46,117 nt of DNA from positions 1-46,117 of IMG/VR virus record IMGVR_UViG_3300008448_000163; one strand, given 5' to 3'. The DNA is from a virus. Positions 1-46,117 of this stretch are shown here, piece after piece. Under the pieces are notes generated by a model. The model had not been told where the DNA came from, ran no database searches, and saw only the letters and a list, made by a program, of their open reading frames with translations. Each line of letters opens with the position of its first letter. Within the stretch, counting starts at the first letter, position 1. Both the position numbers and the translations under genes were made by a program.

Positions 1-430
1 CGCCCGCTCCAGCCGGGCCGCCCGCGCCGCCGCCCCCGCCGCCCGGCGCGCCCGTACCGGACCCGGCGGGCGTGCCTCCCGTGCCGCCCGACGCGACGAC
101 GTCGCCGATGCAGCTCGCCGACGATCCGCCCGCCCCGCCGCCCGCCGACGTTCCGTTAAGGCCCGCTTTGGCGAGAACGGTTGACGAGGAGCTAAACCAG
201 GTATCCGCCTGCGAATCCGCCGCGCCGATTTGAATCGCGAGGGTCGCCCCCGGCGTGACGGTCAGCGCGTTTTTCTTGGCGTAAGCCCCGCCCCCGCCGC
301 CGGATTTGAAAGGGCCGGTCGTTTGCGCGCCAAAGCCCCGCCCGCCCGGACCCAAGCATTCGACCTGGACGGACGTAACGCCGGCCGGGACGACCCAAGC
401 CGTGCCTGCGGTCAGGTAGTCGACGGCCAT
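1..430 (-). CDS. Glycine-rich tail/adhesin protein, N-terminal part (runs off window start)
   Basis: The ATG at 430 opens a frame that stays open to base 1. The first ~55 residues form a beta-type segment (MAVDYLTAGTAWVVPAGV) of the kind that begins glycine-rich phage tail proteins, followed by GGGGGAYAKK and long Gly/Ala/Ser runs. Such domains often form receptor-binding tips or adhesins; that role is inferred from composition. The rest of the protein is almost certainly the partial gene at the other window end (45206-46117), which has the same strand and composition. The leftover single base at position 1 does not match the frame there, so the join misses or gains bases. The gene follows the 434-898 gene by 3 bases in the late operon. 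Confidence 0.75.
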   Translation of the reverse strand, partial: MAVDYLTAGTAWVVPAGVTSVQVECLGPGGRGFGAQTTGPFKSGGGGGAYAKKNALTVTPGATLAIQIGAADSQADTWFSSSSTVLAKAGLNGTSAGGGAGGSSASCIGDVVASGGTGGTPAGSGTGAPGGGGGGAGGPAGAG

Positions 431-433
431 GGC

Positions 434-898
434 CTAGACGACGTTCGGGACTTGCCGCAGGCCGATCGTGAAGGCGATTCCGTCGCCCGACACGACGTTG
501 ATGGCCGAAAAGTTGCCGCGAATCAGCATGTTGCCCGCCGTCGCCGCATCGAACAGGCCGGCCTCTACGATCGTCAGCGTGGAAACGGCGGTCACGGTGC
601 CGACGACTTGGTATGTGTCGTTGGCGACCGTCGTCGTGACGCCGCTTTCCGTGCCGAGCGTACGCCCGCCGCCGGTCGTTGGCGCGGCTTCGGCTACCAA
701 AGTCGTTTGCGACACGGTCGGGGCGGTCGCGCTTGTGCCCCATCCGATGTACCGCGGGGCCGTGCCCGTCTGGAGGATGCGGTTGACGACGATTGACGCG
801 CCCGCGTTTGTGAACGCGACGGCGAGGTTGACGAGGCCGCGGCGAATCAGGTCGCGAAGGCGATCGTCGGCGGGCCGGGGGAGGGCAATGGCGTTCAT
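434..898 (-). CDS. Putative tail-fibre-associated structural protein, 154 aa
   Basis: The chosen start is the ATG at 898 (MNAIALPRPADDRLRDLIRRG), which overlaps the stop of the upstream gene by 4 bases (ATGA). The product looks beta-rich and Thr/Ala/Val-rich (SQTTLVAEAAPTTGGG, TVTAVSTLTIVEAGLFDAA) and has a pattern seen in small phage proteins next to fibres, where an 'AGLFD' segment is common. There is no signal peptide or membrane segment. It lies just before the glycine-rich protein, so a structural or adaptor role in the same appendage is likely. I do not recognise a named family with certainty. Confidence 0.6.
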   Translation of the reverse strand: MNAIALPRPADDRLRDLIRRGLVNLAVAFTNAGASIVVNRILQTGTAPRYIGWGTSATAPTVSQTTLVAEAAPTTGGGRTLGTESGVTTTVANDTYQVVGTVTAVSTLTIVEAGLFDAATAGNMLIRGNFSAINVVSGDGIAFTIGLRQVPNVV

Positions 899-1131
899 TC
901 GGCTTCGCTCGCGGGGGTCAGGGTCAGGGTGACGACGGTGCCGGCCGGATACTGCGCCTCGACGGCGACGATATCCGACACGGGTTGACGCAGCATGATC
1001 GATCCGCGCCCGCTCACGAGCTCCAGGCACACGCCCATGACGGGCGCGACGACGGTCGACCCGTCCGAACGGGTCAGGGTCTCGTCGATCGCCAGGCGGC
1101 TACAGCTCCGGACGGTGTATTGCAGTTCCAT
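895..1131 (-). CDS. Small putative structural protein, 78 aa
   Basis: A short protein starting MELQYTVRSCSRLAIDETL and ending in a Val/Thr-rich beta segment (AGTVVTLTLTPASEAE). Its stop overlaps the next gene's ATG (ATGA), and its start lies 3 bases after the preceding stop, so it is clearly within the late operon. I see no recognisable domain and no membrane segment. It is probably a tail or appendage accessory protein judging by position only. Confidence 0.55.
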   Translation of the reverse strand: MELQYTVRSCSRLAIDETLTRSDGSTVVAPVMGVCLELVSGRGSIMLRQPVSDIVAVEAQYPAGTVVTLTLTPASEAE

Positions 1132-1134
1132 AGG

Positions 1135-1332
1135 TCAGACTTTCCGCGAGAGGGCGAGGAGCGCGCGAGCGATGGCGGCGCACGCGTTGGCCAACGCCAG
1201 CCAGGCGTTGCCGGCGAAAGGAAGCGACGCGTTGACGTCGACGACCGGACCAAGCGACCCGTCAGCATGGACCTTGCGGGCCGTCATGAACGGCTCGAGC
1301 CGTGTTTCGCCCGCCTGCACTTGTCCCATCAT
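1135..1332 (-). CDS. Small hypothetical protein, 65 aa
   Basis: The ATG at 1332 overlaps the stop of the 1329-2129 gene (ATGA); a second ATG follows directly. The product begins MMGQVQAGETRLEPFM, has a central polar part (KVHADGSLGPVVDVNASL) and ends in an Ala/Leu-rich helix (LALANACAAIARALLALSRKV), which is amphipathic rather than a convincing membrane span. No family recognised. Tight overlap with the neighbours supports it as real. Confidence 0.5.
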   Translation of the reverse strand: MMGQVQAGETRLEPFMTARKVHADGSLGPVVDVNASLPFAGNAWLALANACAAIARALLALSRKV

Positions 1333-2129
1333 GCCCCCGAACGTGTTCCGCCGACCGTCAGCGCGAAATTGCCTAAAGTCGCATCTTGCACGATCGGCAA
1401 CGCTATGGCCAGTACCCCGGCGGGTTGCTCCGGCTCGACGATCGTAAAGACCGGCTCCGTCGCGCCGGCCGCGAAGCTGGCGGTCCAGATGATAGACGCG
1501 CCGACGCTCGCCGTGACCGTCTGCGCGACGCTGGCGGGATTGCGCACGCTGCCCCCAAAATAGTCGGCGTCGAGCGTCAGCGGCACGGGAAAGAACAGTT
1601 CGACCACCTCGCCGGCCGCCGGCTTGTCGCCGAACCACATAGGCGCAATGACGATGGCGCGCGCGGCCGGACCTGGCGGCCCTTCGTACGACACGATCAC
1701 GACGGGGTCGCCGGAGCCGATGCCCTCGACGGTCACGGTTGCCCCCGCGACGTCGGCCGACACGCCCGGATCATACGCCGCGCCGGGCGGCTGGCCGCGG
1801 AAGCCCCACGCCTGAATCTGCCCGGCCCAAATGACGCGCGGGTCAACGGGCGTCTCGTCGCGCATTGCGAACGGGAGGTTCTGCGTCAACGCGAGCTCTT
1901 GGACCAGGTCGACGGGCAGGACCAGGCGGCGCGTGTAGAAATCATCGCCGGCCAGAAGCTCGATGCGGTACGCGCCGCTCACCTCGAAAAACAGCGCCCA
2001 CTCGGAGATATCGACGAAGGTGCCGGGCGTTGCGCCCTCGACCTTGAACAGAATGACCGCCGCCGCGCGACCGTGAACCGTAATGTTCCCGGTGCGACTA
2101 TCGACGACGACGCGTTGACGAGCGGCCAT
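1329..2129 (-). CDS. Putative tail/appendage structural protein, 266 aa
   Basis: This is the first gene of the minus-strand block that runs on into the adhesin and the head genes. ATG at 2129 is preceded by a purine-rich AGGGGGC ribosome-binding sequence. The protein looks all-beta, with several Val/Thr/Ala-rich strands (GATVTVEGIGSGDPVVIVSY, AQTVTASVGASIIWTASFAAG), as in phage fibre or baseplate-associated proteins. I do not recognise a specific family. A TATAGT hexamer about 25 bases upstream of the start could be a -10 element, but no good -35 is visible. Confidence 0.6.
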   Translation of the reverse strand: MAARQRVVVDSRTGNITVHGRAAAVILFKVEGATPGTFVDISEWALFFEVSGAYRIELLAGDDFYTRRLVLPVDLVQELALTQNLPFAMRDETPVDPRVIWAGQIQAWGFRGQPPGAAYDPGVSADVAGATVTVEGIGSGDPVVIVSYEGPPGPAARAIVIAPMWFGDKPAAGEVVELFFPVPLTLDADYFGGSVRNPASVAQTVTASVGASIIWTASFAAGATEPVFTIVEPEQPAGVLAIALPIVQDATLGNFALTVGGTRSGA

Positions 2130-2196
2130 GCTGCCCCCTGATTTGCGCGGGACTATAGGCGAGCGACGCCGCGCGCGCTAGGCGGAAGAAAGATAG

Positions 2197-2225
2197 TTGA
2201 CGGCTCCGTCCACTTTGCGTAATGT
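2197..2225 (+). promoter_or_regulatory. Promoter with palindromic operator, copy 1
   Basis: TTGACG (2197-2202), a 17-base spacer and TAATGT (2220-2225) form a good sigma70-type promoter. The -35 box is the first arm of the inverted repeat TTGACGGCTCCGTCCA (2197-2212), shared with six other gene-start regions here. A bound repressor would block polymerase. The promoter fires into the small plus-strand operon starting at 2278. Confidence 0.75.
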
Positions 2226-2277
2226 TCCTCTTGTCAGCGCGGCAATCCCGCACGCGCTTTCTTTCGGGGGTCTCCCT

Positions 2278-2436
2278 ATGACCGTTCGCTTCGTGATCTT
2301 CGCCCGCAACGCTGACGGCGCGGTCTTTGAATGCTTCCGCTGGACGCGTGACGAAACGTCGGGCATTGCCCGCGCCTGGTCGGACGCGGCGCGCTTCGGC
2401 GTCGTCATCACCGACGCTTGGGCGGTGCCGGCGTGA
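2278..2436 (+). CDS. Small hypothetical protein, 52 aa, first gene of plus-strand cluster
   Basis: The ATG at 2278 (MTVRFVIFARNADGAVFECF) follows a GGGGGT purine stretch. The product looks like a compact alpha/beta fold ending DAARFGVVITDAWAVPA; no family recognised. It is first in a run of five overlapping short genes behind the promoter at 2197. The cluster sits on the strand opposite to the surrounding late genes, which suggests an acquired or early-expressed accessory cassette. Confidence 0.6.
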   Translation: MTVRFVIFARNADGAVFECFRWTRDETSGIARAWSDAARFGVVITDAWAVPA

Positions 2437-2693
2437 CGGCCGCGACCTGGACGCGGGACGGCGCGGGTTGGCGGGCCATCGTGGACGCCAACGTCACGCT
2501 TTTCGCCGTGCCGGATCGCACGCGTCGAGATCAGCCGGCGCGCGGCACGAAATGGCGCGCGGGCGCGACGCATTGGGATGAAGACACGCGGACGGCCTCG
2601 CGCTTCGGACGAGACGTCTACGGCGAGCTCTGCCCGGACGCCAAAGCGGCCAAGGCGCTCGCGGAAGCGGTGTACGCAGAGGCGACGGCATGA
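2433..2693 (+). CDS. Small hypothetical protein, 86 aa
   Basis: The best start is GTG at 2433, which overlaps the previous stop (GTGA). The product starts VTAATWTRDGAGWRAIVDAN and carries many charged residues (RTRRDQPARGTKWRAG), ending in an Ala-rich helix (DAKAAKALAEAVYAEATA). No family recognised. Its stop overlaps the next ATG, so the gene is translationally coupled on both sides. Confidence 0.6.
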   Translation: MTAATWTRDGAGWRAIVDANVTLFAVPDRTRRDQPARGTKWRAGATHWDEDTRTASRFGRDVYGELCPDAKAAKALAEAVYAEATA

Positions 2694-2878
2694 CCTACGC
2701 CACCCGCCGAATCATCCGCAACCGCCCGGAAGGCATGATCCGGGCCGCCGATCTGGACGCGGCGCTAGAACGCGCGCGGCGCATCGTTCGGGGCCAACCG
2801 GACGTGCGCGGCGTCGACGTGCTGCGTCGGCCGGACGGACGCAGCCATTGGGACGTCGTCGCTACGGTGACGGCATGA
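2690..2878 (+). CDS. Small basic hypothetical protein, 62 aa
   Basis: Begins MTYATRRIIRNRPEGMIRAA and ends DGRSHWDVVATVTA. It is rich in Arg (ALERARRIVRG), so nucleic-acid binding is possible but unproven. ATGA overlaps at both ends keep it in the plus-strand cluster. Its opening TRRI resembles that of the next gene (MNATRRIETV), so the two might be distantly related duplicates. Confidence 0.55.
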   Translation: MTYATRRIIRNRPEGMIRAADLDAALERARRIVRGQPDVRGVDVLRRPDGRSHWDVVATVTA

Positions 2879-3048
2879 ACGCGACCCGCCGTATCGAGAC
2901 CGTGACCGCGCAGCGCCGCCCCGTTTGGGAATGGGCGGTCTTCGCTTACGTCGGGTCGCGCGAGGTATTCCACGAGGAGCAGCTTTACACGCCTCGCGCC
3001 GTCGAGGCGGCCCGGCGGCGCGCGCAGGAGGCGCTAGACCGTGTTTAG
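2875..3048 (+). CDS. Small hypothetical protein, 57 aa
   Basis: The ATG at 2875 overlaps the preceding stop (ATGA). The product, MNATRRIETVTAQRRPVWEW then AVFAYVGSREVFHEEQ, ends in an Arg/Ala helix (AVEAARRRAQEALDRV). No domain recognised. The Trp- and Arg-rich segment would suit a small protein-binding inhibitor, but that is only a guess from composition. Confidence 0.5.
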   Translation: MNATRRIETVTAQRRPVWEWAVFAYVGSREVFHEEQLYTPRAVEAARRRAQEALDRV

Positions 3049-3112
3049 CATCGCCCTCGCCTTGGTCGTGGCCGCCGGTGCGGTCGTGGCGATCCTGCGG
3101 CTCGTCAGGTGA
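3041..3112 (+). CDS. Candidate 23-residue single-span membrane peptide
   Basis: A GTG at 3041 overlaps the previous stop by 8 bases and opens a 23-codon frame that is almost wholly one hydrophobic helix (VFSIALALVVAAGAVVAILR), ending LVR before a TGA. Its length and composition suit one membrane span with a positive C-terminal end. It overlaps the 3' end of the opposing MuF-like gene by 8 bases. It could be a chance frame, so confidence is low; the overlap style matches the cluster. Confidence 0.35.
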   Translation: MFSIALALVVAAGAVVAILRLVR

Positions 3113-3896
3113 AGCCCGGCACCACCGGCCGGGCGATGCAGCCGCAGTTGATTTCAAAGCCCGGCCACGTCCATTTGCCTTCCAGGAACATGCCCTTCTC
3201 GACGTCGTAGGTCTTGCCCGACGCCGCGACGTGCTCCGGCCGCGGCTCTTTCGCCCCGCCGCTATGCACCCAAATCGCTTTCGTGATGCCGAGTTCACGG
3301 TGGCGGGCGCGCTGGAGCATCGCCGTCGCCTTGTTGTTCTGGTCGCGGGCGATGAGGGCGGCCCGGCGCGTAGAGACGCCGTGCGCGGCCTGTAGGTCGC
3401 GCGTGAGGGCTCCGATATCCCGGCCAGCCTGGACGCTGCGCATGACCGCCCCTTGGACGCTGGCGGCGTACTTCTCCGGAATGCTGCGGATGAGCGCGAC
3501 GTTCTCCGCGACGGTGGCGCTCACCACGTCCTGTTGCGCGGCGCTCATTCGGAATTCGACCGTAAAGCCGGCCTTGCGAAGCGACGCCCGCAACGCCGCG
3601 TCGCTGCGGCGGTTGACGTCCTGCGCGAACCACCTCGCCAGCTCCGGCGCGAGCGCATCGAATTTGCGTTGCCACCGGCGCGCCCAATCCTTCACCGCCG
3701 CGTTGAGCTCGACGGCCGGCGACGCGTCCATGGCGACAGGCGGCGTCGCCCGGTACGCGGCCGGAATCCAATAGGCGGCGCTCTTGGCCATGCCGTCGAC
3801 CAGGCGGTCGAGGCGGCGCTGATATTCGGCGCGGATGCCCTGGTTTGGCCGGACGGGGGCGAAGGTCTTAGGCTTCCTCGCCATCGTCTTCGTCAT
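3105..3896 (-). CDS. MuF-like head morphogenesis protein, 263 aa
   Basis: Residues ~185-263 match the C-terminal domain of phage Mu F-like minor head proteins: a RDQNNKATAMLQRARHRELG helix, IWVHSGGAKEPRPEHVAASG, then a Gly-Lys-Trp-Trp-Pro region and a Cys pair (EINCGCIARPVVP). These proteins attach near the portal and help head assembly or DNA delivery. The gene stands next to the portal, as usual for the family. Two starts are possible, the ATG at 3896 or the ATG four codons later; both overlap the end of the small acidic gene upstream. Its 3' end overlaps the opposing plus-strand cluster by 8 bases. Confidence 0.85.
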   Translation of the reverse strand: MTKTMARKPKTFAPVRPNQGIRAEYQRRLDRLVDGMAKSAAYWIPAAYRATPPVAMDASPAVELNAAVKDWARRWQRKFDALAPELARWFAQDVNRRSDAALRASLRKAGFTVEFRMSAAQQDVVSATVAENVALIRSIPEKYAASVQGAVMRSVQAGRDIGALTRDLQAAHGVSTRRAALIARDQNNKATAMLQRARHRELGITKAIWVHSGGAKEPRPEHVAASGKTYDVEKGMFLEGKWTWPGFEINCGCIARPVVPGFT

Positions 3897-4035
3897 CCCA
3901 AATCCCGGTTGCCAGAAGACGCGCGTCCTCGTCGTCGCCGGGGTTGTAAAACTCCTCCTCCGTAGGCTCCGGAATGTCGACGTCGGGAGCCGGCGGGGGC
4001 AGGAGAGGGCTAGGCTTTCCGTTTAAATAGCGCAT
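3868..4035 (-). CDS. Small acidic protein between portal and MuF-like gene, 55 aa
   Basis: A short frame begins ATG at 4035 inside the 3' end of the portal gene, with a strong GGAGG 9 bases upstream. It encodes [20 protein letters not shown] followed by a very acidic tail (EPTEEEFYNPGDDEDARLL, then WDDEDDGEEA) and stops inside the MuF-like gene at 3868. It fills the ~113-base gap between those two genes, and its extreme acidity and good Shine-Dalgarno argue that it is translated. The function is unknown; an acidic head-assembly cofactor or DNA mimic are both possible. Confidence 0.65.
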   Translation of the reverse strand: MRYLNGKPSPLLPPPAPDVDIPEPTEEEFYNPGDDEDARLLATGIWDDEDDGEEA

Positions 4036-7000
4036 CGACGTGATCCTCCAGGGCTTTAGGCAAGGTGCCGCGCACGTAGTCTTCTGACGTCACAAGGGCG
4101 GCAAGCTCCGCGTCCGTCTCGTACATATTCGTGGCCGCATATTCGCTGATGTTTTTCGCGATCCACTCCCGGCGACCCTTAAGGTCGCGGGGGATTTCCG
4201 GAACCGTGTCGAGCGTGTAGCGCAGCCGGGCCGGCGAGTTTATGTGCGCCTGCATACCCAACGCGTGAGCGAGCTCATGGATCGCCGTTGCGCGGATCGA
4301 GGTTGCGGGGTCTTCGCCACCAACCGTCCAACGCCCTTTGCCGGCCGCCGCGCGCGCCTGATGGTGCGCGGCTTGGTCCGCCAGGGCCGCAAGGCCGCTC
4401 TTGGACGCAGAGACGGCAAAGTACCCCCGGCCGCCAAGCTGCCAGGAAAGACCGAGCGCCTTGCCCGTCGACGCCGGCACATACTGGATATCCGCGCCGG
4501 CCATGGCCGCCTTGAGGTCGTATCCCTGCGCGGTCAGATAGTCGAGCGCCCCGGCGACTTGACCGGCCGTCTTGCGCGCGGCTTTGGCCCCGGCGCTGTT
4601 GTCGTTCGCGTCGTAGGACTTGGCCCCCCGAACACGAGCGGCCGGGTCGATACCGATACGCTTCCGCAGCTCGCGGATTTTGTCTTCGACCGCCGCCCGC
4701 GCCTCCGGCGTTAGGGTCCGGTAATCGCGCTGGAGGTCGGCGTAAACCTTCTCATATTCAGCTTTCGCGCTCGAATCGACATTCCAGAACGATATTCCGT
4801 AAGCGTCCTCGAAATGCTTTGAAATGTCCGCGGCCGGCGTCGCAGAAAACCGCGCTTCCATTTCTTTGACGGCCTTGCCCGCTTCCGACGCGCCTAGCGC
4901 CGCGCCCTGCGCTTTACGCTTTTCGGCCTTTTCTCGCTTCTCCGCTTTGGCGCGTTGGTTCCACGCGTCGTAATACGCCGTTATATGTTCGCCGGCCAAT
5001 TCGTCATCACCGGCTTTCTTGGCCCAATTGGCGGCCTCCCGATGCTTCGTTATGGCGGTGTTCCACTCGACGAACGTCTTTGCGGATTCCGACGCCGCAC
5101 GCGCTTCGGCGCTTGCCGTCTTGGCCACCTCTGCGGCGTGGCGCTTCTTCTCCTCCGGATCGGTCGCGTTTTCGTACGCCTCGCGCGGGTCGACGGGGTC
5201 CGGCTCCGGTTCCGGCGCGCTCCCGCCGCCGCCCTGGCCGCCGGCCGTCTGGTCGGTCTCGCCCTTCGGCTCCTCCGCAGAGCCCCCACCGCCGCGCGTC
5301 TTGCCCTTGGTCTTCGCCGTGAACGTCCGGCCGTTGAGCTTGCCGCCAGCGCCGCCCTTGACGGTCACGGTGCCGCCCGCGCCCTCCTCGACCTTGACCG
5401 GCGTGCCCTTGTGTTCCTTGCCGTTGGGATGGACCGTAATCCAGCCTTCGGCGTCAGCGGCCATGCTGCGCGCCGGGCGGATCATCGTTTCGCTGACGGC
5501 ATAGTCTTTGTTACGGCCCTTGTTCTCGACGAAGCCGAAACGCTTGTAGAATTCGACCAGGCGGGACTTGGACCCGCCGAACGCCGAATCTGGCGTGAGC
5601 GCGAGCGTCTTGCCGTGCTTGTCCGCATACTCGACCAGCGAACGCATGGCCTGCGACCCGGCTCCGGTGCCCCGCGCCTCTTTCGGCACGACGATCTTGG
5701 AAACCGTGACCACGCCGCCGCGGCTCTCGTGCATGAAATGGTCGATGCCGGCGGCGTCCCATTCACGTTCAACGCTGGCCAGGTCGTCATGCGTGCCCCC
5801 GCCGCCTTCGCCAAACTTGCCGCTCGCGTCGCGCGGGTGATCGGCCTCCGACCAAGCGTCAGCGGCTAAAGGGTCGGCTTCCTCGCCCCCGTCGTCGGGT
5901 AGATTGCCCTCGCCGCCGTCCTCCGGTTGCTCCGGCACGTCGGCGACCGGGATGCCCTGGTACGGGCCGCCCTGTTGGCGCGAAATGCGCTCGCGCACCT
6001 CCTGCGTATGGATCACGCCGCCGTCGACATAGACCATGTCGGTGTCGGCCTCCGTCTTGCGGATGGTCGCCAACTCCGCTTCGCTAGGTTGCCAGAGCGG
6101 GACAAACGAGAAGCTGATTTCCGGATCGATCGCCCCGAACAGGTGCAGTTGCAAGAGCTCCAGCACGACCGTCAGCGGCTCGCGGAAAATGTCTTCCTGT
6201 TGCGAGTTGATCCACGCGTAGAAGGTTTTTATCTCGCCGTCGCTCGAGGCGTTGAGCCCCGACGGCGTGACGCCCAACAGCACGACCAGGGGAATGCCGG
6301 CGACGCTGGCCATTTGCTCCTGCGCTTGCGCCTGGAGCTTGTCGAGCGACGACAGGGGCGTTGCGACGTTGGCGAATTCCTCCCGGTCGAAATCGATCAT
6401 CTGAAGGCCGCGGTTGTCCCGCGTCGCGTTGAACAGCTCCGCGCGCCCGATGATCGATTCGGCCCCGCCGCCCTGAAGAATGGCGCTCATGTCCGTCTTG
6501 AGAACGGCGACAGAGAAGGTATGCACGAGGTCGCCGACGCTGTCCCGCGTGCGAATCCAGTTGTCGACGTAGGGCTTCGCCATCTGCGACATGGACAGGC
6601 CGCCGAACGAATAGGTCGGCTTAAGCAGGTCCGGCACCTCCCGGCTTACGACCGTCAAGAGGCGAGACGAGTCGACCAGGTTGCCCATGACAAACCAGTT
6701 GCGCGGGCGGTAGTAGGACGAGAGGAGCGGGTTGTTCGTGTCGTAGTCGTTGGGATAGACCCACATCGGTTCCACGGTGCGGAAGCCGCGGAGCTGGCCT
6801 TTCGCGGTCGTGCCGTCGCCCTTGGGAATCTTGCGCGGATCGCGGACCAGAGGCGTGTCGAGCTCGCGCGGGTCTTCGCTGTAGCCCGTATCGATATAGA
6901 TATGGCCGCGGCCAAAGAACCCGTCGAGCTCTGCGGCCCGCCGGAACACGTCTTGCACGTTGAACGTCCGCAGCGCCGTCGTCAGCGCCTCGACCTTGTC

Positions 7001-7366
7001 GCTCTTGGTCTCGTCGCCGCCGGCCGTGACTTCGATCCAACGCCGGGTCATTTCCTTGGCGATGATTTCGCTGATGCGGCGGTACTCCGGCCGTTGCGTG
7101 AGCTCCGCAAGGTACGGGTAGCCCATGAACGTCAGGCCCTCTTGCCAGAGGCCCCCGTACACCGTCGACGCCCACTGATAGGACGCGACCACGGCGCTCT
7201 CATCGCACGCCAGCGCGACGCCCTCCGGCACGACGCCGGGGGGCGGGCGCACGGCGGCCCAAGGCGAGGGCACCGGGCCGGAGCCGCGCACCGCCTGGAC
7301 GGTCTCGCGCGAGATTGCCTTGATCCGGTGGCGCGGCTTGGCCGCCTGGTCGGGAATATCGCTCAT
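4010..7366 (-). CDS. Portal protein fused to GNAT and metallopeptidase domains, 1118 aa
   Basis: Residues ~1-480 are a DUF1073-type phage portal ([39 protein letters not shown]), the dodecameric ring through which DNA enters the head. A Gly-rich linker with [12 protein letters not shown] (~510) leads to a GNAT-like acetyltransferase segment at ~540-630: an acetyl-CoA loop [14 protein letters not shown], then [15 protein letters not shown]. After a charged, helical Ala/Glu/Lys-rich stretch, the C-terminal ~200 residues hold a zinc-peptidase motif [12 protein letters not shown] (~1030-1041) with a downstream [14 protein letters not shown]. This resembles MPTase domains of phage polyvalent proteins that are injected with the DNA. 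A usual portal has about 450-550 residues, so this one is doubled in length. ATG at 7366 overlaps the terminase stop (ATGA). Confidence 0.85.
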
Positions 7367-8982
7367 ATCGCGGCCAACGCCCCTCGATTGATCTGCATCG
7401 GTTCAAAGCCGGTGCGACTGTATGCGATCATCACGGCGTCGGCTAGGTTGGGACTCTTGGACCCTTCCGGCGTCTTGTCGATCACGATCTTCCCGGCGTT
7501 GTTGAGCGAGAAGGTCGGTTGCGACAACTCGCCGGTGAGCTTCGTCAGAAGCGGCAAGTCGGCGCGGATCGATATGATATCGGCCGGGTCGTACGGGTCG
7601 CCCTGGACGGCGCGGTAGGTGGCCCGGAAGCGCTGACGCAGCCGCCACCAGGATTGCGCCTTCTGATTCGAGAAGAAATCCGCGTTCTGGCGGCCCTTCT
7701 CGTCTTCGGCCTCCGGTCGGAAAATCTCGCCCGACCCCCGGAACGCCAGGACGTCCAGCACCGGCCGCGACGCCGCCCGGCGCGCTTCGTTGATGACGCG
7801 GGCGTCCCCGCGCACGCCGGCACCCAAGCCGTCGCCGTCGTACTTGAGCCGCGGGACGTTGTGCGTGTCGCAATGGCCGAAGGCGCGCAGGACGGAGCCA
7901 TAGATATCGTCGCCCTTGCCGTACCACTCCTCGAGCGCAAACAGCTCTTGCCCGTGACGGCCCGCCCATGCGAGCGCGTCGCGCCCCTCGTCGGCCACGT
8001 CAAAGCCGGACTCCCGCACGCCGGCCGGGGCGATGCCGAGCCGCGCGCACGCGCCGACGGCGGCTTGCACCCATGCGGACGGGATAAGCACGCCCTCCGC
8101 GCTGGCCGCATAGTTGCGGTCGATTTCCTGCGCAACGGTCACGGGGTCGAGCTCCGCGCATTGCTTCTCGTACCACTCTTGGGACTTGCGCGGGTCGTCG
8201 CGCCAATCGAAGACGAACACCGGAATGCGTCCGCTATGGCGCTTGACCTGGAACGGGTTCCCCATGCCGTTAACTGACGAGACGTCGATGCGGCAATTCG
8301 TCGTGGCGCTCAACGACGCCTCGACGAGCTGCGGCCGCTCCAGAAAGGCCGACTCGTCGACGAAGTAGATCGTTTGGCGGTCGCCCCGCCCGATGCCGTC
8401 GCCGGCCTCGCCGGTGATGTTGCTTTCCGTCGCCGGGAATTTGATCCGCATATGCGGCGCGTCGGTGCGGCGGTTCCAACCGTTCGTAAATTCCGGGGGC
8501 AAATACTCGATGAATTTCCGGGCCTTGTAGAAAAGGCTCTTGGGCGCGTCGAGCTTGTCGACGTACTCCTCTTTCCGCGACCCGAACCCGATGTTCATGC
8601 CGCGATTGAACAGACAGAGCGTCGCGCCAAGACCGACCGCCAGCCACGAAATGCCGCAGTCCCGGCTCTTTTCGGTCAAGCCCGGCTCGCGGCCTTTCCA
8701 GCGCTCCATGACCCACTCGACCCATTCGCGTTGCTTGGGGAACAACAGGAAGGGCACGAGCGCCGGCCGGTCGACGTCGAGGTTGCGGGGGTCGAACGTA
8801 ACGCCCCAATCGTTGATGAAGTCGGCCGGGTTGTGTCGGTAGTGCGCGCGCAGCGGCGGGAGCCTGGCCGCCGGGTCCTCGCGTATCCAGGCGAGCCGCT
8901 GCATACGCTCGACGAAGACGGGCCGGTAGTCCGGGTGTTGCCAGTCAAAGCCGTCCAACGGGTCAGGCGCTCCCCGCCGCAC
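7363..8982 (-). CDS. terL: Terminase large subunit, 539 aa
   Basis: The ATPase-nuclease motor that packages DNA into the prohead. The N-terminal half has an adenine-binding/Walker A-like region ([18 protein letters not shown], ~102-115) and a Walker B motif with catalytic Glu ([14 protein letters not shown], ~202-215). The C-terminal half carries RNase H-like nuclease acidic residues ([14 protein letters not shown] ~325, [14 protein letters not shown] ~380, [12 protein letters not shown] ~510). The length is normal. The start is a GTG at 8982 directly after the upstream stop; the end overlaps the portal ATG. The small subunit is not adjacent but lies 3.6 kb upstream beyond the lysis genes. 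Confidence 0.92.
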
Positions 8983-16777: not shown

Positions 16778-16806
16778 ATCTAACGCTAAGTGGACGGACC
16801 CGTCAA
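16778..16806 (-). promoter_or_regulatory. Promoter with palindromic operator, copy 4
   Basis: Minus strand TTGACG (+ 16801-16806), 17 bases, TTAGAT (+ 16778-16783). Operator TTGACGGGTCCGTCCA. It drives the operon 16751 to 15349 with the GapR-like gene. The operator's distal end overlaps the stop of the primase-helicase gene. Confidence 0.75.
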
Positions 16807-19208
16807 CTATTAAAAGCCTTGGCCGCTGCGGCGGTGCTTTGCGCCCGGCTGTAGGCGGCGGCGATATCGGCCGACGTCGTCAGGCTCAACGCCAGGTGCC
16901 CGTTGCGAAGGTAGAGGATGGGCTTGCCGGCGTCAGGCGTGACCACGGTGCCGAGCCGGCCGCCGTCAAGTGCCGGGTGCCAATCGTAGCCGAGCGCTTG
17001 CATCATGCCGCGCCGCTTGTTCCGGGGTACGTTGAACCGATGTTCGGCCAGGAGCGCGTCGAGGTATTTGCTCGAGACGAAGCCGCCAAGGAATCCGATT
17101 CGCCCTTCTGCGATGGCCTCCATAACCTCTTGTTCGGCCCGGCCAAGACTGGCGTAGATCGCCGCTTTCGTGCTTGTCGTCTGCGGAGCCCGAGAAGGCA
17201 TTTCCGCCGGCAACGGGAGCGTCTTGAGGTAGTGCGCGACGATCGCCCGGCCCGGACCATGCACCCATGCCCGATAGGTCTCGAAATACGTCTCCGTCAG
17301 GCCGTCGGTCGCCAGGTCGGCCTTGAGTTGCTGCGCGGTGTAGAAGATGGCGTATCGCCGCTCCTCGTCGTCGATCGGCACGCCGTCTTTGTGGTTCGTC
17401 AGGATCACGCCGTTCGCGGCGTTGTCCCCCGTGACTTGGTCGACGCCCTTGCCTTCGATCGGCACCCGGCTTTCGGTCACGATGGGTTTGAATTCCTCCA
17501 GAAAGTCCCGCTTGTGCGATAGCGACACTTCGTCAAGCACAACGAAGGTTTTACGGAGGAGCCACTTGTTAAATTTCATGCCGTCTTTAGCAAGCGCGGC
17601 GGCGTTAGGCTTGTGCGTGTATTGTTCGCCGAAAATATACGTGAGCAACGTCGCCAAGAGACTCTTGCCGTTGCCCTTAACGCCTTGAATGACCGGCCAC
17701 CACGGCACTTTTACGCCGGGATTCTGGACGATGCGGGCGAAATATTGCAACAGGCTCGCCCGGTCGCCGGGGTCCGGCAACAGCCGCGCCAAGTGGTCGA
17801 GGAACGGCGCGGGGTCTCCTGGCGTCGCCTCGCACTCGTAGGGGGCGTAAGTGTTGACGAGCGTGTAGTTGCCTTCGCGCACGATCGCCCCGGTCGGGTG
17901 CTGCGGCCGAAAGCACAGATCGTCGACGATGGCCGGTTTGTTCACGCGGGACCGGGTGAGGGCCATGTAGGCGCTATCGACGGTCTTCTGCCCCATGGCG
18001 TCCAGCACGAAGACGTGCCCGCCATACTCGACGTCAAACGCCTCCCGCTTCATGAGCTTGTTCCGAGCGGCGCTGTATATGCGCTCCAGGTCGCTGATGT
18101 AGGTGCATCCGGCGAAGTGCGTCAGTTGCTCACGGGGGCCTAGAAACTCCCGGCCGGGGTCTCGCGTCCCCCACTGGCCGGAAGCGGCGTCCTGCGCCAC
18201 CGCTGCGGCCGGGGCGGGTGCCGCAGCGCCCTCGCGGGCCACCGCCTGTTGCGCAGGCGTGACCGGCGCGCCCGTCTCCCGCGGAGTGGCGACCTTGCCG
18301 ACGAAGGCGCACGCCTTGAGAATGGTCGTGCGCAGATAGTTGACGTGGCCGGGGGCGTCCCACTTCTCGCGGACCAGGCCCGACGCGCGCATAAGGCGTT
18401 CGATCCGCTCGCAATCCTTGCCGGTCCAGTATGCCAGATGGTTTGCAAGCGCTTGGTCCGCCTCGCTTCGGCCGTCGTGCGGCACGTCGCCCGCCCATAG
18501 GTCGGCGAAGGTCAGGCCCCCGCCGAAGGCCGCTTTTGCGCTCCTGGCGGCTCCGGCCAGCGCCCGGCGAATCAGCTCGTCGTCGTCCGCCGGCCCGCCC
18601 CACTCCGCGACCGGGGCAACGGTCCATTCCCCGACCTGGCCGGCTCCGACCGCCGTCGGCGGGAAGTAGAGGGCCGCCACGGTCGCCAGCTCGCCCGTCG
18701 CGTCGCGCCCGGCGTCGCCCTGCGCATGAATGCCCGTCAGCGCGGCGAAGCGGTTGCGCGTGTAGAGCTCCAGATGATTGTCGAGATTGCGGGTCCCGTG
18801 CGTCGGGGCCGCGCCCTGGTAGGTGCCGAAGATATGCAGCCCCCGGCCGCTATGGCTCACCTCGACGGCGCACCCGGCAAAGCGCCGGCAAAGGTCTTGG
18901 GCGGCGGGGCTCCATTGGCCGTCCGGCCCTAGCGCGCCGTCAGCGTCGACGAAGAAAAACGGGTCGGCCTCCGTGAAAACAAAGCCGATGCCGGAACCAT
19001 GTCCGCGATCGTACGCTTTGGACATGGCAAGCGCCGCTTGCGCGTCTGTCCAGTTAGCCGGGTCCAGCGGGTTGCAAGGCGCGCCCGTCGACCAATGGCA
19101 AGGGATTTTGTCGTACTTGCCCGGATGCTCCGGACGCGGCACGGCAAACCACGCGACAAATTGTCCCCTCGCGACCATAGCCGCGAAGGCTCCCGTTAGG
19201 GCGTCCAT
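16803..19208 (-). CDS. Primase-helicase (prim-pol-like plus SF3/D5-type helicase), 801 aa
   Basis: The N-terminal ~200 residues have a prim-pol-like pattern: GIGFVFTEADPFFFVDADG (~73-91) with an acidic metal site, and EVSHSGRGLHIFG (~112-124). A linker rich in Ala/Pro (~300-330) leads to a helicase with Walker A (IQGVKGNGKSLLATLL, ~508-523) and Walker B (KTFVVLDEVSL, ~552-562). The VILTNHKDGVPIDDEERRYA motif is typical of phage D5/DUF5906 primase-helicases. It would unwind and prime phage DNA. ATG at 19208. It lies between the TetR-type gene and operator copy 4. Confidence 0.85.
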   Translation of the reverse strand: MDALTGAFAAMVARGQFVAWFAVPRPEHPGKYDKIPCHWSTGAPCNPLDPANWTDAQAALAMSKAYDRGHGSGIGFVFTEADPFFFVDADGALGPDGQWSPAAQDLCRRFAGCAVEVSHSGRGLHIFGTYQGAAPTHGTRNLDNHLELYTRNRFAALTGIHAQGDAGRDATGELATVAALYFPPTAVGAGQVGEWTVAPVAEWGGPADDDELIRRALAGAARSAKAAFGGGLTFADLWAGDVPHDGRSEADQALANHLAYWTGKDCERIERLMRASGLVREKWDAPGHVNYLRTTILKACAFVGKVATPRETGAPVTPAQQAVAREGAAAPAPAAAVAQDAASGQWGTRDPGREFLGPREQLTHFAGCTYISDLERIYSAARNKLMKREAFDVEYGGHVFVLDAMGQKTVDSAYMALTRSRVNKPAIVDDLCFRPQHPTGAIVREGNYTLVNTYAPYECEATPGDPAPFLDHLARLLPDPGDRASLLQYFARIVQNPGVKVPWWPVIQGVKGNGKSLLATLLTYIFGEQYTHKPNAAALAKDGMKFNKWLLRKTFVVLDEVSLSHKRDFLEEFKPIVTESRVPIEGKGVDQVTGDNAANGVILTNHKDGVPIDDEERRYAIFYTAQQLKADLATDGLTETYFETYRAWVHGPGRAIVAHYLKTLPLPAEMPSRAPQTTSTKAAIYASLGRAEQEVMEAIAEGRIGFLGGFVSSKYLDALLAEHRFNVPRNKRRGMMQALGYDWHPALDGGRLGTVVTPDAGKPILYLRNGHLALSLTTSADIAAAYSRAQSTAAAAKAFNS

Positions 19209-26088: not shown

Positions 26089-26260
26089 CGCCCGGCAACA
26101 CATCGGCCAGCTCAAGGCCGTCCTCTTTCAAGAGGAGTTCACGCGGGACCGCATCGGCGAGCCCGGCTGTCGCATCCGGCGCATCGCCGCCGACAATGCC
26201 GAGTCGCTGCGATGGGCGATCGAACGGCTGGAGGCGCAAGAGCGCCGCACGCCTCTGTGA
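26081..26260 (+). CDS. Small helical protein upstream of DNA polymerase, 59 aa
   Basis: MADARQHIGQLKAVLFQEEF, followed by an Arg-rich helix (CRIRRIAADNAESLRWAIER). Its stop overlaps the polymerase GTG (GTGA), so translation is coupled. No family recognised; a small nucleic-acid-binding or polymerase-accessory role would fit the position. Confidence 0.6.
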   Translation: MADARQHIGQLKAVLFQEEFTRDRIGEPGCRIRRIAADNAESLRWAIERLEAQERRTPL

Positions 26261-37728: not shown

Positions 37729-39660
37729 TTATTGAACCTCAAGGCTCGCGAGCGAGATGCGTTGGACGGATTGCCCATCCGTGTACCAGAAAGTGCACGG
37801 GGGCGATTGGCGGGCGGCGCGAACGGCCGGCGACGCGTCGCTGATTTGGAGATACCAGCCGCGCGTCTGGAGCGTCGGGGCGATTTCGATGCCCGCCGCG
37901 CCGTTGACTTCCGAAATCTGCGCGGCCGAAAGGGTCACGCCGGGCCGGATCGCGCCGAAGTTCAGCGCGTCGTTGATCGGGTCCGCCAGGGCGGCGGCGA
38001 TCATCGTATATCCCGCGTCATTGTAGGGGATGGATCGCGACTGCGTCAGGAGGGTCATGAGCGCGTCTTGGAACGCGCTGTTGAGCCAAATTTGGTTGAC
38101 GTAGGAGTCGGCCCAAAGATACGGGCCGGTCACGCTGCCCGGATACAGGAAGCCAAATTGATCGGCCGACGTGGCGTAGAGGCCGTAGAAGTTGAGCCCG
38201 TTCGCCTCGAGCTGCGCGGCGATCGTCCCATCGGTCACGTCGGGGGTCAGGCCGCTTTGCGAGCGGAACGCGAGGGTCGTGCGCCCGTTGAGGCGCTCGA
38301 AATCGATCGCCGCGACCGCGCCCATGACGAACGCCGACTTATAGGTATTGATCGGCTCGTAGAGCAGGAACGTGCCGGAGTAGCCGGCGGCGATGATGCG
38401 GGCCGCAGCCGTGGCGGCGTTGTTGGGCGGGGCGAGCGTGTTGGCGATCGCGGTCGTCCACATGACGTACATGAACCGCTCGTCTTCGCCGTCGGCCCAG
38501 GCGGCAAAAGCCACCTTGTCGTCGGTGATCGGGTCGAAAGTCGTCGTGAAGCTGGCGAAGTTCTGCGTCTGTTGGATCACGGCGGCCATGTTGGTAGCCG
38601 GGACGCCTTGGGCCGCGCCTTGCGACGTGACCGCGCCGGTGGCCTGCGTCAGCTTGAGCGACGTCGCCATGGCTCCGGACGCGAAACCGATCGTCGACGC
38701 CGGGCCGGACGTGCCGCCGGTGATGACGAACGCCGCGGCGGTGCTGTCGTAGGTCACGAGCTCCGGGCCGCAGCTCAACGTGGTGCTGGAGGCGGTTTGC
38801 GACGGCGTGACGAAGTAGGTCCCCACCCCGCCGGTGCCGGTGCCGAATTGCGTGATCGTGGTGCCGACGGTGACGCCGGTGCCGCTCACGACTTGGCCGA
38901 TGCCGAGCACGCCCGACGAGACGGCGCTGACGGTCATGACGCCGTAAGAACCCGTGATAGCCGTGCTTGCGACCGACTGCGCGACGCTGACCAGGTAGGT
39001 GCCGACCCCGCCGGTGGTGCCGGAGAGTTGCTTTTGGACCATGGTGCCGGCGGTGACGCCGGTGCCGGCGATGATCGCGCCGTTGACGATCGTGCCCCCG
39101 CCGACGGCGGTCACGGTCATGATGGTGTCGGTGATGCTGGCGGTGACGGCCATCGTCGTGTTGGTCGCGATCGCGCCGGTCACGACGGCGTCGAAAGCGG
39201 CCAGGGCCGTTTGGATCGCGGTCGCGGCGGCGGAGAACGAAGCGACGGCCGAGAGGTTGATGGTCCCCGACGTCTTGACCGACCCGTTGATGGTGACGGA
39301 AATCGTGCCGTTGGGGATGGCCTGGAGCTGCGCGAGCGTCATGCTCGCGAGCGATCCGCCGCGCAGGTACGCCGGGACGCCGCGGGCGTTGGTCGGGTAC
39401 TGCGCGAACAGCATCGCGCCCGGCTTGGTCAGCGAGTTGGCGAAGCCGCCGAAGTAGATCACGGCTTCGGCATACTCGACGCTCGAGAGGCCGAAATACG
39501 CGCCGACGGCGGCGGCGGTCGGGAAGCTGAGAACCTGGCCGATCGGGACGCGCGTGCTGTCCGTCAGGAGGAGGCCGGACAGGTCGAGCCCGGTGCCTCC
39601 CGCCGAAATGACACCGGGATTGACGTTGACGATTTGCGAGGCGGGGATGGCGGCGACCAT
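37729..39660 (-). CDS. Tail sheath protein with inserted beta modules, 643 aa
   Basis: The contractile sheath: N-terminal MVAAIPASQIVNVNPGVISA and GLLLTDSTRVPIGQVLSFPT, and the C-terminal core DPINDALNFGAIRPGVTLSA, AQISEVNGAAGIEIAPTLQT, ARQSPPCTFWYTDGQSVQRI. Between them, residues ~166-298 hold two copies of the beta module also seen in the decoration and fibre proteins. This makes the protein ~130 residues longer than many related sheaths. The modules would lie on the outer face of the sheath; that placement is inference. Confidence 0.9.
   Translation of the reverse strand: MVAAIPASQIVNVNPGVISAGGTGLDLSGLLLTDSTRVPIGQVLSFPTAAAVGAYFGLSSVEYAEAVIYFGGFANSLTKPGAMLFAQYPTNARGVPAYLRGGSLASMTLAQLQAIPNGTISVTINGSVKTSGTINLSAVASFSAAATAIQTALAAFDAVVTGAIATNTTMAVTASITDTIMTVTAVGGGTIVNGAIIAGTGVTAGTMVQKQLSGTTGGVGTYLVSVAQSVASTAITGSYGVMTVSAVSSGVLGIGQVVSGTGVTVGTTITQFGTGTGGVGTYFVTPSQTASSTTLSCGPELVTYDSTAAAFVITGGTSGPASTIGFASGAMATSLKLTQATGAVTSQGAAQGVPATNMAAVIQQTQNFASFTTTFDPITDDKVAFAAWADGEDERFMYVMWTTAIANTLAPPNNAATAAARIIAAGYSGTFLLYEPINTYKSAFVMGAVAAIDFERLNGRTTLAFRSQSGLTPDVTDGTIAAQLEANGLNFYGLYATSADQFGFLYPGSVTGPYLWADSYVNQIWLNSAFQDALMTLLTQSRSIPYNDAGYTMIAAALADPINDALNFGAIRPGVTLSAAQISEVNGAAGIEIAPTLQTRGWYLQISDASPAVRAARQSPPCTFWYTDGQSVQRISLASLEVQ
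38770..39165 (-). repeat. Shared beta modules, sheath copies (two)
   Basis: Two tandem copies in the sheath gene. The + strand shares short exact runs with the decoration gene, for example GACGGCGGTCACGGTCATGA near 39103 and near 43153 and 43333, showing DNA-level relatedness rather than only protein similarity. Confidence 0.8.
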
Positions 39661-43848: not shown

Positions 43849-45189
43849 TTAGATAGCGAGGCGGAGGCGGTTGACGTTGTCGCCGAACCGCTTGGACAGG
43901 CCGTCGCCGGCCTTGGCGTCCATGGCGATCGGGCGGCGCGTGTCGGACTTCTCGCCGGGCTTCGGCAGGAGGGCGACCATAGCGCGCAAGGCGGCGGTCT
44001 CACGCACGGCGGCGTGATCGACGCCCGCGTGATCCAGCGCCATACGGTAGATGGCGGCGGCGCTGTCCATGGCCACGGTGATTTCGCCGACGAAGGGCGC
44101 AACGTCCCGTTCCGCCTGGCGGATGGCGTGGAAGTCGGCCGTCAGGTTGCGGCGGATGGTGGCGGCGTCCATGGCGGGCTTGTCCTGTTCGGCGACCGGC
44201 TCCGCGCCGGGCGGCTGGAGGGTCGGGGCGTCTTCGTCTTCGGCGGCCGGCGCGTCGCCCATCGCGGCGATCTGCGCGAGAACGTCAGCGTCCACCTTGC
44301 CCTCGAGCATCGCGCAGATGCGGGAAACCAGGTCGCCGTCGCCGTCGACGGCCGGGGCCGATTCGGGGATGACGTCGGCGTCGGCGTCGGGGGCGGTGCC
44401 TTCGATGGCGTGAATGACCTTGACCACGTCGTCGACGTCGATCCCTTCGTCAGCGGCCAGGAGCGGCGTCGCCGCGCGCACGATGCGGGCCGGAAGGTCG
44501 GCGGTCGTGCGCCGGTAGCTCGCCCGGTTGACGTCGCGGACCAGCGGCCCGACGTCCAGCGCCTTGTCCGCGGCCAGGCGCGGGGCGATGAGCGCGTGAA
44601 GCGCTCCGGTGAGCATAAGAGCGGTGCGTGACGTCTTCGCCATGGTGTCTTGGTCCCCAACTACCACGTCACGCCCGGCGCGCCCTTGCTGGACCAACGC
44701 GACGTGATTTCCCACGATGCTACGCATGACGCCGTCGTAGTGCAAGCCCTTGTATGTGCCCGGCGTCATGTCCGCTACATATCGATACGCGGAGCTCAAT
44801 TCGCGTTGCACTTCCTGTTCGATGCCGGCGATTGCCGCTCCGGCCCAAATCACGAGGGAGTTGCGGAGATATTGGCCGTCAAACGCCGCATCGGTCCCGG
44901 TGCTGCCAACGACCAGGTCCGGTTGGTGGGTGTCGCTACCCGTCGCCGATACCGGGACGTGGCGCGACAGAATCGGGAGGTTGTTGAACGTCGGCGCGGC
45001 CTTCTCCAGCTCGTCAGGATCGCGCAACAGGTGATAGACGCGGTCGAGATTGAGCCCCAAGCCTTCCGCGCCGGGAATCTCGCGGCCATAGTAGGGGTTA
45101 ACGGCGGCCTTGCTGATATTACTGGCGGCAACGTGCAGCCGACCGTCGGCGTCGTAGTGTCGTGCGGAACGGTCCATTGCAAGGCGCAT
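43849..45189 (-). CDS. DUF2213-type prohead protease and scaffold, 446 aa
   Basis: Residues ~1-180 match DUF2213: LHVAASNISKAAVNPYYGRE, IPGAEGLGLNLDRVYHLLRD, FNNLPILSRHVPVSATGSDT, YRYVADMTPGTYKGLHYDGV and MRSIVGNHVALVQQGRAG. The rest is acidic and helical (DADADVIPESAPAVDGDGDL), as expected of a scaffold. The protein would shape the prohead and then cleave itself and partners. I chose ATG at 45189. An in-frame ATG at 44643 (MAKTSRTALM) with GGGGA upstream could make a separate scaffold of 264 residues. Confidence 0.82.
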   Translation of the reverse strand: MRLAMDRSARHYDADGRLHVAASNISKAAVNPYYGREIPGAEGLGLNLDRVYHLLRDPDELEKAAPTFNNLPILSRHVPVSATGSDTHQPDLVVGSTGTDAAFDGQYLRNSLVIWAGAAIAGIEQEVQRELSSAYRYVADMTPGTYKGLHYDGVMRSIVGNHVALVQQGRAGRDVVVGDQDTMAKTSRTALMLTGALHALIAPRLAADKALDVGPLVRDVNRASYRRTTADLPARIVRAATPLLAADEGIDVDDVVKVIHAIEGTAPDADADVIPESAPAVDGDGDLVSRICAMLEGKVDADVLAQIAAMGDAPAAEDEDAPTLQPPGAEPVAEQDKPAMDAATIRRNLTADFHAIRQAERDVAPFVGEITVAMDSAAAIYRMALDHAGVDHAAVRETAALRAMVALLPKPGEKSDTRRPIAMDAKAGDGLSKRFGDNVNRLRLAI

Positions 45190-45205
45190 GTCCGTGCGTA
45201 CCCCG

Positions 45206-46117
45206 CTAGTTGAGCCAAAGCAAGATGCGCCGCCGCACGGCCGTAGCCGCCGCAAACGCTGCGGTCAGCACGGGAGCCGACACCGTTGCGATGGCAAGGA
45301 TCACGGTGGCCAGGAGCGACACGGACGGCGCGGGCGCGGTGTCGACGTCGAGACGCTTGCTCACGCCCGCTTGCGTCGTCGCGACGGGGGCCGTGGTGAC
45401 GGGCAGGGGCTTGTCCGCCAGGCGCGACATTCGCGGCGACGTGTTGGCCCGGCCTAGCACGGTGCGCGAGACGGCGCGAGACAGGTCGGCGACTGCACTC
45501 GCCGCGCCTAGCAACGTCTCAAAATATATCGTCGTCGTTGCGATCGTGCCGAGCGAGGACGACAGGCCGGCGACGGCCTTGGACGCCAGCTTTTGGATAG
45601 CTCCCCGCGACGTTGAGCGGCCCGCGATCCGCGACGCCGTGTTGCGGACGGTCAAGAGGGCGGGCGTGTTCTCTGCGACGAAAGACACCGGCGTCACTGA
45701 CGAGGCGGTATAGGTCAGGACGATCAGGCCGCTCCCGCCCGGTCCGCCCTGCCCATTGCCGTATGCGCCGCCACCGCCGCCCCCATATGCGCCGCCCGCG
45801 CCGCCGGGAATGGCCGTGCCGCCCGAACGTCCGCCCGCGCCGCCACCGCCGGAACCGACACCGTACCCGCCGCCAAACTCGCCGTTATGGGAGCCCGCGC
45901 CGCCGACATTGGCCCCGCTACCATTGGAGCCGCCCGCGCCGCCGCCGGAACCCGACGCGCCCGCCGCGCCCGCCGTATTCGTCGCGCCGCCCGCGCCGCC
46001 CGGCGCGCCAAGCGGCCCGGTTCCGCCCGCGCCGCCCGTCGTCGTGACGTGGTCTTGGCCCGCGCCGCCGCCGTTTGCCCCGCCGCCGCCTCCGCCGCCC
46101 GTCGAGGCGCTTATCCC
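45206..46117 (-). CDS. Glycine-rich tail/adhesin protein, C-terminal part (runs off window end)
   Basis: The frame is open from base 46117 to the stop at 45206. The first ~130 codons are Gly-rich with Ala/Ser/Asn/Tyr (GAYGGGGGGAYGNGQGGPGG) and end in SGLIVLTYTAS, a common closing strand of such domains. About 160 residues follow: Ser/Arg/Ala repeats (VRNTASRIAGRSTSRG, LSRAVSRTVLGRANTS), and near the end a hydrophobic span (VSLLATVILAIATVSAPVLT) and a basic end. This is unusual for a tail protein. It continues from the part at 1-430. It precedes the protease gene by 16 bases. Confidence 0.7.
   Translation of the reverse strand, partial: GISASTGGGGGGGANGGGAGQDHVTTTGGAGGTGPLGAPGGAGGATNTAGAAGASGSGGGAGGSNGSGANVGGAGSHNGEFGGGYGVGSGGGGAGGRSGGTAIPGGAGGAYGGGGGGAYGNGQGGPGGSGLIVLTYTASSVTPVSFVAENTPALLTVRNTASRIAGRSTSRGAIQKLASKAVAGLSSSLGTIATTTIYFETLLGAASAVADLSRAVSRTVLGRANTSPRMSRLADKPLPVTTAPVATTQAGVSKRLDVDTAPAPSVSLLATVILAIATVSAPVLTAAFAAATAVRRRILLWLN

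What the first reader, a model, noticed from the sequence alone, without database searches (positions are those of the whole stretch)
4010..7366. Portal fused to acetyltransferase and metallopeptidase domains
A DUF1073-type portal core is followed in one unbroken frame by a GNAT-like domain (~540-630) and a C-terminal HELAHALG zinc-peptidase domain. Portals normally end near 500 residues. Twelve copies of each enzyme would surround the DNA channel. They could be cut free and injected as host-acting effectors, or modify or process head proteins. Polyvalent phage proteins with such domains are known, but their fusion to a portal appears unusual.
Basis: partly seen in the sequence, partly recalled or inferred. 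Interest (0 to 1): 0.85.

Follow-up and report, generated by a model that had tools for sequence, protein, structure and literature searches.

The report
Phage portal carrying two fused enzymes
A virus protein that forms the DNA gateway of a phage head carries an acetyltransferase-like and a zinc-protease-like unit in the same chain; it is a new example of a known habit, in which phages hang swappable enzymes on proteins that face the inside of the head, probably to deliver them into the bacterium.

Summary
Window 7366-4010 (minus strand) is one intact 1118-aa frame: a PF06381/DUF1073 portal, a GNAT-like domain (about 540-631) and a C-terminal zincin-like module (HELAH 1030, [12 protein letters not shown] 1076).

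In a survey of 160 related portal loci, 29 carry more than 100 extra C-terminal residues, variously ADP-ribosyltransferase, zeta-toxin, NUDIX, InPase, PBECR, LPD3, topoisomerase IB, GNAT or zincin. The same GNAT family (53-61% identity) sits on two other portal lineages (a third is weak), on a prohead protease, and in giant polyvalent proteins. Residues 637-1118 align end to end (about 40%) with stand-alone genes lying between terminase and portal in other phages. The closest relative (portal 63%, TerL 72%) has no extension.

So the enzymes are accessory cargo added at the portal C-terminus, which in solved relatives points into the head. Most likely they ride inside the head, are released by proteolysis and act in the host; packaging, cleavage and injection are inferred. 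Published work already describes portal fusions with other effectors. The GNAT plus zincin combination was not found elsewhere. The zincin fold rests on motifs and a sequence profile; structure prediction was inconclusive.

The parts
4010..7366 (-). Single 1118-aa ORF: portal - hinge - GNAT - WIT module - zincin module
   Evidence: coding score positive in this frame over the whole length
6038..7117 (-). Portal core, PF06381 (DUF1073), residues 84-443
   Evidence: Pfam E 3e-80, profile positions 2-355 of 357; E217 and Pa193-type portals in the PDB
5813..5854 (-). Hinge motif [14 protein letters not shown], residues 505-518
   Evidence: recurs before C-terminal modules of other portals and head genes: 53 matches in 13,639 ORFs of the fetched loci, 0 in shuffled ORFs; the only copy in the window
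5474..5749 (-). GNAT-like acetyltransferase domain, residues about 540-631 (acetyl-CoA motif RGTGAG)
5330..5443 (-). WITVHPNG...GGAGGKLNG adaptor, residues 642-679
   Evidence: same motif near the N-terminus of stand-alone head-cluster genes and on another portal, L033
4019..4999 (-). Zincin-like module, residues about 790-1116 (helical part plus peptidase core)
   Evidence: 41% identity, E 1.6e-52 to G297; end-to-end alignments A3 and A5
4265..4279 (-). HELAH (residues 1030-1034), predicted Zn ligands and general base
   Evidence: invariant in A3/A5
4106..4141 (-). [12 protein letters not shown] (residues 1076-1087), carries the predicted third Zn ligand (E1083 or E1087)
   Evidence: pattern hallmark of a broad phage zincin family: 114 of 117 ORF occurrences have HExxH within 130 aa upstream, 0.55 expected in shuffles
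7363..8982 (-). Terminase large subunit; its end overlaps the portal start
   Evidence: PHROG 2 terminase, E 9e-22; 72% to L014 TerL
3105..3896 (-). MuF-type head morphogenesis protein
   Evidence: PF04233 E 5e-10; PHROG 324 E 5e-79
43849..45255 (-). Separate head maturation protease of this phage
   Evidence: PHROG 2229, E 2e-115

Best explanation
A normal dodecameric portal to which a two-enzyme, polyvalent-type cargo has been added at the C-terminus. In solved relatives the portal C-terminus points into the head, so up to twelve copies of the GNAT and of the zincin would lie in the head interior, tethered by flexible Gly/Pro-rich linkers. The most likely use: the cargo is cut from the portal (by its own zincin or by the prohead protease), leaves with the DNA and acts early in the host, the GNAT acetylating a host protein and the zincin processing the cargo or cutting a host target. 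Shown: one intact frame, domain identities by sequence, accessory nature, modular exchange with other head proteins. Inferred: position inside this head, cleavage, ejection, enzymatic activity, targets.
For: Portal core complete. The closest relative (TerL 72%, portal 63%, MuF 59%, protease 74%) has no extension, so the enzymes are not needed for portal function or assembly in that relative. The same GNAT sits on other portals (L310; the L071/L316/L317/L318 family; weakly L061), on a DUF2213 prohead protease (L309) and in giant polyvalent proteins. The zincin module exists as a separate gene between TerL and portal (L375, L379) or in the head cluster (L384). 29 of 160 related portals carry swapped extensions, many with conflict-type enzymes. 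Of 43 diverse zincins with the same motif, 19 are fused to MuF, 1 to a portal family and 1 to DUF2213. E217 and Pa193 portals (765 aa): C-terminal barrel projects into the head, residues after 528 not modelled (PMC10329688, PMC11042391). Separate maturation protease in the window.
Against: No virion data. No site of cleavage is known. The zincin fold has no significant structural match and no Pfam peptidase family reaches its cut-off. The GNAT piece is short (about 95-105 aa). The missing density in E217/Pa193 may be disorder rather than cleavage, and those tails were not shown to be enzymes.
Confidence: 0.6

Rival explanations
1. Morphogenesis enzyme: the zincin (and perhaps the GNAT) processes or modifies portal, scaffold or other head proteins during assembly and is not delivered to the host.
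For: The stand-alone zincin gene lies between terminase and portal in L375/L379; GNAT and zincin are also found on prohead proteases and MuF.
Against: The phage has its own maturation protease. The closest relative keeps TerL, portal, MuF and protease but lacks GNAT and zincin. Portal tails are exchanged among unrelated enzymes such as ART, zeta toxin and NUDIX, which fits cargo better than a fixed assembly step.
Confidence: 0.2
2. Anti-defence guard at the entry site: the domains stay attached to the portal and act on host defence proteins that attack incoming DNA or the packaging machine.
For: Published authors raise this option for portal- and terminase-linked ARTs (PMC9503650). The GNAT is shared with proteins annotated 'DarB-like antirestriction'.
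Against: The portal stays with the empty particle outside the cell after ejection (general knowledge of tailed phages), so attached domains would only act late in infection. No defence target is identified.
Confidence: 0.1
3. Nested or separate product: the zincin part is also made as its own protein from the internal ATG (residue 635, nt 5464), like the stand-alone genes of relatives.
For: An in-frame ATG lies just before the WIT module, where stand-alone homologues begin.
Against: The bases before this ATG (GCCCGGCGCGCAGC) show no evident ribosome-binding site, and the whole frame is coding.
Confidence: 0.07
4. Assembly artefact joining separate genes.
For: The contig is an IMG/VR virus record without reads at hand; lower third-position GC in the zincin part (0.66-0.81 against 0.85-0.91 in most of the portal) shows a different origin.
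Against: Continuous coding signal. The hinge plus GNAT unit continues in frame from a portal in independent contigs L310 and L071/L317/L318.
Confidence: 0.03

Closest known systems
Portal-effector fusions of Iyer et al. 2017 (PMC5512222) and the 2022 NAD+/ADPr survey (PMC9503650): portal with PBECR, 2H, InPase, NUDIX or ART
   Same: Head structural protein with C-terminal enzyme domains, gene in the terminase-portal-MuF cluster, proposed to be packaged and injected
   Different: Here GNAT and zincin are both on one portal; neither is named as a portal fusion in the passages read
Polyvalent proteins with GNAT (DarB-like/PLxRFG, e.g. Serratia phage Parlo CPT_Parlo_081, Klebsiella phage vB_KpnP_ZX1)
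   Same: Same GNAT family, 60-63% identity; in related giant proteins an HExxH site often follows the GNAT
   Different: Those are 2000-4000 aa proteins without a detected portal domain; here the carrier is the portal itself
Burkholderia phage BcepNY3 gp16 (portal + NUDIX) and Pseudomonas phage Orisa03 portal (portal + ART)
   Same: PF06381 portal plus C-terminal enzyme; Orisa03 also has the HPR..GKFG hinge
   Different: One enzyme only, of another fold
L375/L379 stand-alone zincin gene between TerL and portal
   Same: Aligns with residues 637-1118 end to end, about 40% identity
   Different: Separate gene, next to a portal of low similarity (24-28% in the sister loci L376 and G297)
E217 and Pa193 portal gp19 (PDB 8fvh, 9b41)
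   Same: Related portal (phmmer E about 1e-30) with an extension beyond residue 528
   Different: Extension about 237 aa, not modelled; its nature was not examined here

Membership tests
PF06381 phage portal | Full-length profile match above the gathering score | tested here: met
   270 bits against 33.8; profile 2-355 of 357
PF06381 phage portal | Gene order terminase - portal - MuF | tested here: met
   TerL 8982-7363, portal 7366-4010, MuF 3896-3105
GNAT superfamily | Profile match above a curated cut-off | tested here: met
   Acetyltransf_1 22.5 against 20.7 bits; Acetyltransf_7 23.8 is below its 27
GNAT superfamily | Acetyl-CoA motif (Q/R)xxGx(G/A) | tested here: met
   RGTGAG; R30, G33 and G35 invariant in A2
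GNAT superfamily | GNAT fold | not tested
Zincin-like metallopeptidase | HExxH plus a downstream Glu ligand | tested here: met
   HELAH 1030 and E1083/E1087, conserved in all homologues
Zincin-like metallopeptidase | Match to a curated peptidase family | tested here: not met
   best M10, 14.6 against 24 bits; an own profile of 97 phage zincins matches at E 1.4e-12, partly motif-selected; without the second motif E 0.014
Zincin-like metallopeptidase | Fold: three-stranded sheet flanked by helices | tested here: inconclusive
   element order fits, but confidence is low and no Foldseek hit has E below 0.001
Polyvalent proteins (Iyer 2017) | Unrelated enzyme domains linked in one polypeptide of an invasive element | tested here: met
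   GNAT plus zincin-like module
Polyvalent proteins (Iyer 2017) | Encoded with virion or late structural genes | tested here: met
Polyvalent proteins (Iyer 2017) | Packaged in the virion and injected | not testable with these tools
   needs virion proteomics and delivery assays

The most novel reading that the evidence does not exclude
The portal C-terminus in this family is a general docking site for exchangeable enzyme cargo, and two short motifs that no Pfam family covered in these scans, the hinge [WF].E.DHPR...GKFG and the adaptor WITVHPNG...GGxGGKLNG, are its working parts: processing sites or encapsidation tags that let the same enzymes be carried on portals, on prohead proteases or as separate head-cluster genes.
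Probability: 0.25. Interest if true: 0.7.

Novelty: new member of a known kind. Interest (0 to 1): 0.45.

Why it matters
It shows an acetyltransferase-like and a zinc-peptidase-like unit placed on the one head protein that surrounds the DNA exit, and gives the comparative set needed to test delivery: the same enzymes fused, unfused and absent in related phages. If head-facing portal tails are delivered, the portal becomes a further loading site for host-takeover enzymes besides MuF and free internal proteins, and the recurrent hinge and adaptor motifs offer handles for studying cargo loading.

Tried and rejected
Zincin module against annotated phages and plasmids: no match. First viral scans with the whole protein or its C-terminus found one GNAT relative and nothing for the zincin; a degenerate DNA pattern for YA.TN..E..AE then found the family. 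P0003 in 8 genomes or records behind loci: none. P0001 in 289 genomes of one class: portals and two weak GNAT matches only, no zincin. Single-sequence AlphaFold model: pLDDT 56; 7-sequence alignment: 61.5; Foldseek PDB and viral: nothing below E 0.001. A combined GNAT plus zincin alignment misaligned and was not used. Frameshift or artefact rejected. No paper found naming a portal-GNAT-zincin fusion, but the library lacks most subscription journals.

Full report
What is there. The finding is real and correctly placed, but the gene is on the minus strand: ATG at 7366, stop at 4010. The window is a 46,117-base IMG/VR virus record of a contractile-tailed phage with sheath, baseplate, MuF, a separate head-maturation protease and a large terminase. 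The 1118-aa product starts with a complete PF06381/DUF1073 portal (84-443, E 3e-80). After a hinge, [15 protein letters not shown] (from 505), follows a GNAT-like domain (about 540-631), then a conserved piece WITVHPNG...GGAGGKLNG (642-679), a low-complexity linker, a helical stretch and a zincin-like core with HELAH (1030) and [12 protein letters not shown] (1076-1087). Codon statistics favour this frame over the entire length; third-position GC drops from 0.85-0.91 in most of the portal to 0.66-0.81 in the zincin part, which suggests a later acquisition.

GNAT. Acetyltransf_1 passes its Pfam cut-off and the other GNAT models are below theirs. The domain is 60-63% identical to part of DarB-like/PLxRFG polyvalent proteins of Serratia phage Parlo and Klebsiella phage vB_KpnP_ZX1 and 64% to a plasmid protein annotated as GNAT. 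A scan of viral contigs gave 61 loci. Most lie in proteins of about 2000-4000 aa, often with an HExxH site shortly after; but L310 (portal-GNAT with a second hinge) and L071/L316/L317/L318 (portal-GNAT-NUDIX) are portals, L061 is a weak third case, and L309 is the hinge plus GNAT fused to a DUF2213 prohead protease.

Zincin. No annotated phage or plasmid in the collections matches it. A DNA pattern for YA.TN..E..AE found a broad family: 114 of 117 in-frame occurrences have HExxH within 130 residues upstream, against 0.55 expected after shuffling; the selection was on the second motif only, so the HExxH enrichment is independent. One member, on record G297, matches residues 790-1116 at 41% (E 1.6e-52). 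Its relatives L375 and L379 carry it as a stand-alone gene of 507-511 aa lying exactly between terminase and portal, aligned with residues 637-1118 from the WIT piece to the end. In L384, a phage with a PF06381-type portal, it is a separate ORF beside two other ORFs with the WIT motif. Of 43 diverse motif-bearing zincins, 19 are fused to MuF, one to DUF2213 and one to another portal family. Structure prediction is compatible in element order but not confident, and Foldseek gave nothing significant, so the fold is supported by sequence only.

How common is the arrangement. Among 160 loci with related portals (80 viral contigs, 80 genome contigs) 29 have more than 100 residues beyond the portal end (24 viral, 5 genomic; some are near-duplicates). 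Pfam finds ART, zeta toxin, NUDIX, InPase, LPD3, PBECR3, topoisomerase IB and GNAT there; L070 and L093 carry HExxH motifs that look zincin-like but reach no Pfam family. The sample is the most similar portals, so the fraction is not a population estimate. The closest relative of the window, L014, shares TerL 72%, portal 63%, MuF 59% and protease 74%, and has no extension.

Mechanism. Cryo-EM of E217 and Pa193, whose portals are related, shows the C-terminal barrel pointing into the head, with residues after 528 not modelled. By analogy the extra 600 residues of this portal would lie in the head. Because the module is exchanged among portal, protease, MuF and free head-cluster genes, all of which end up in or at the head interior, cargo for delivery is the best reading; Iyer et al. 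proposed this for portal-PBECR, -2H and -InPase fusions and a zincin role in autoprocessing, and a later survey added NUDIX and ART. A phage GNAT that triggers cleavage of host RNA polymerase alpha is known (Rac, PMC7552054), which makes an acetylate-and-cut pairing thinkable but is not evidence for it. Packaging, cleavage, ejection, activity and targets are all inferred.

Verdict. Real, well supported at sequence level, a new member of a known kind. The exact portal-GNAT-zincin combination was not seen elsewhere in the collections searched. The more novel reading, that the hinge and WIT motifs are working parts of a cargo system, is open.

Noticed in passing
window 37729-39660 (sheath) and 42916-43836 (minor head protein), minus strand: Tail sheath and a minor head protein both match the same domain families (PHROG 21413 and 38233, the latter a tail-fibre family), suggesting a shared inserted domain.
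   Followed up: no
L372 (G299) 7386-8747: Hinge motif plus GNAT fused to the N-terminus of a DUF2213 prohead protease.
   Followed up: partly
L384 6582-7478, 7704-9425, 9337-13044: Three consecutive head-cluster ORFs each carry the WIT...GGKxxG motif near the N-terminus.
   Followed up: partly
L064 2663-3766: Portal with a C-terminal topoisomerase IB domain (Pfam E 8e-18).
   Followed up: no
L061, L015, L017, L019: Portals with a C-terminal zeta-toxin-like kinase domain.
   Followed up: no
window 4010-7366 and 43849-45255: PHROG 30637 (1119 positions) matches both the window portal (227-522) and the window maturation protease, so some phages may fuse portal and protease.
   Followed up: no
window 16803-19208 minus; 26212-28527 plus: NrS-1-like primase-polymerase/helicase and a DNA polymerase.
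   Followed up: no
window 1-8982 and 43849-46117: Head genes continue across the contig ends (protease at 45255, portal at 7366), which suggests a near-complete permuted genome, though no terminal repeat of 20-200 bases was found.
   Followed up: partly
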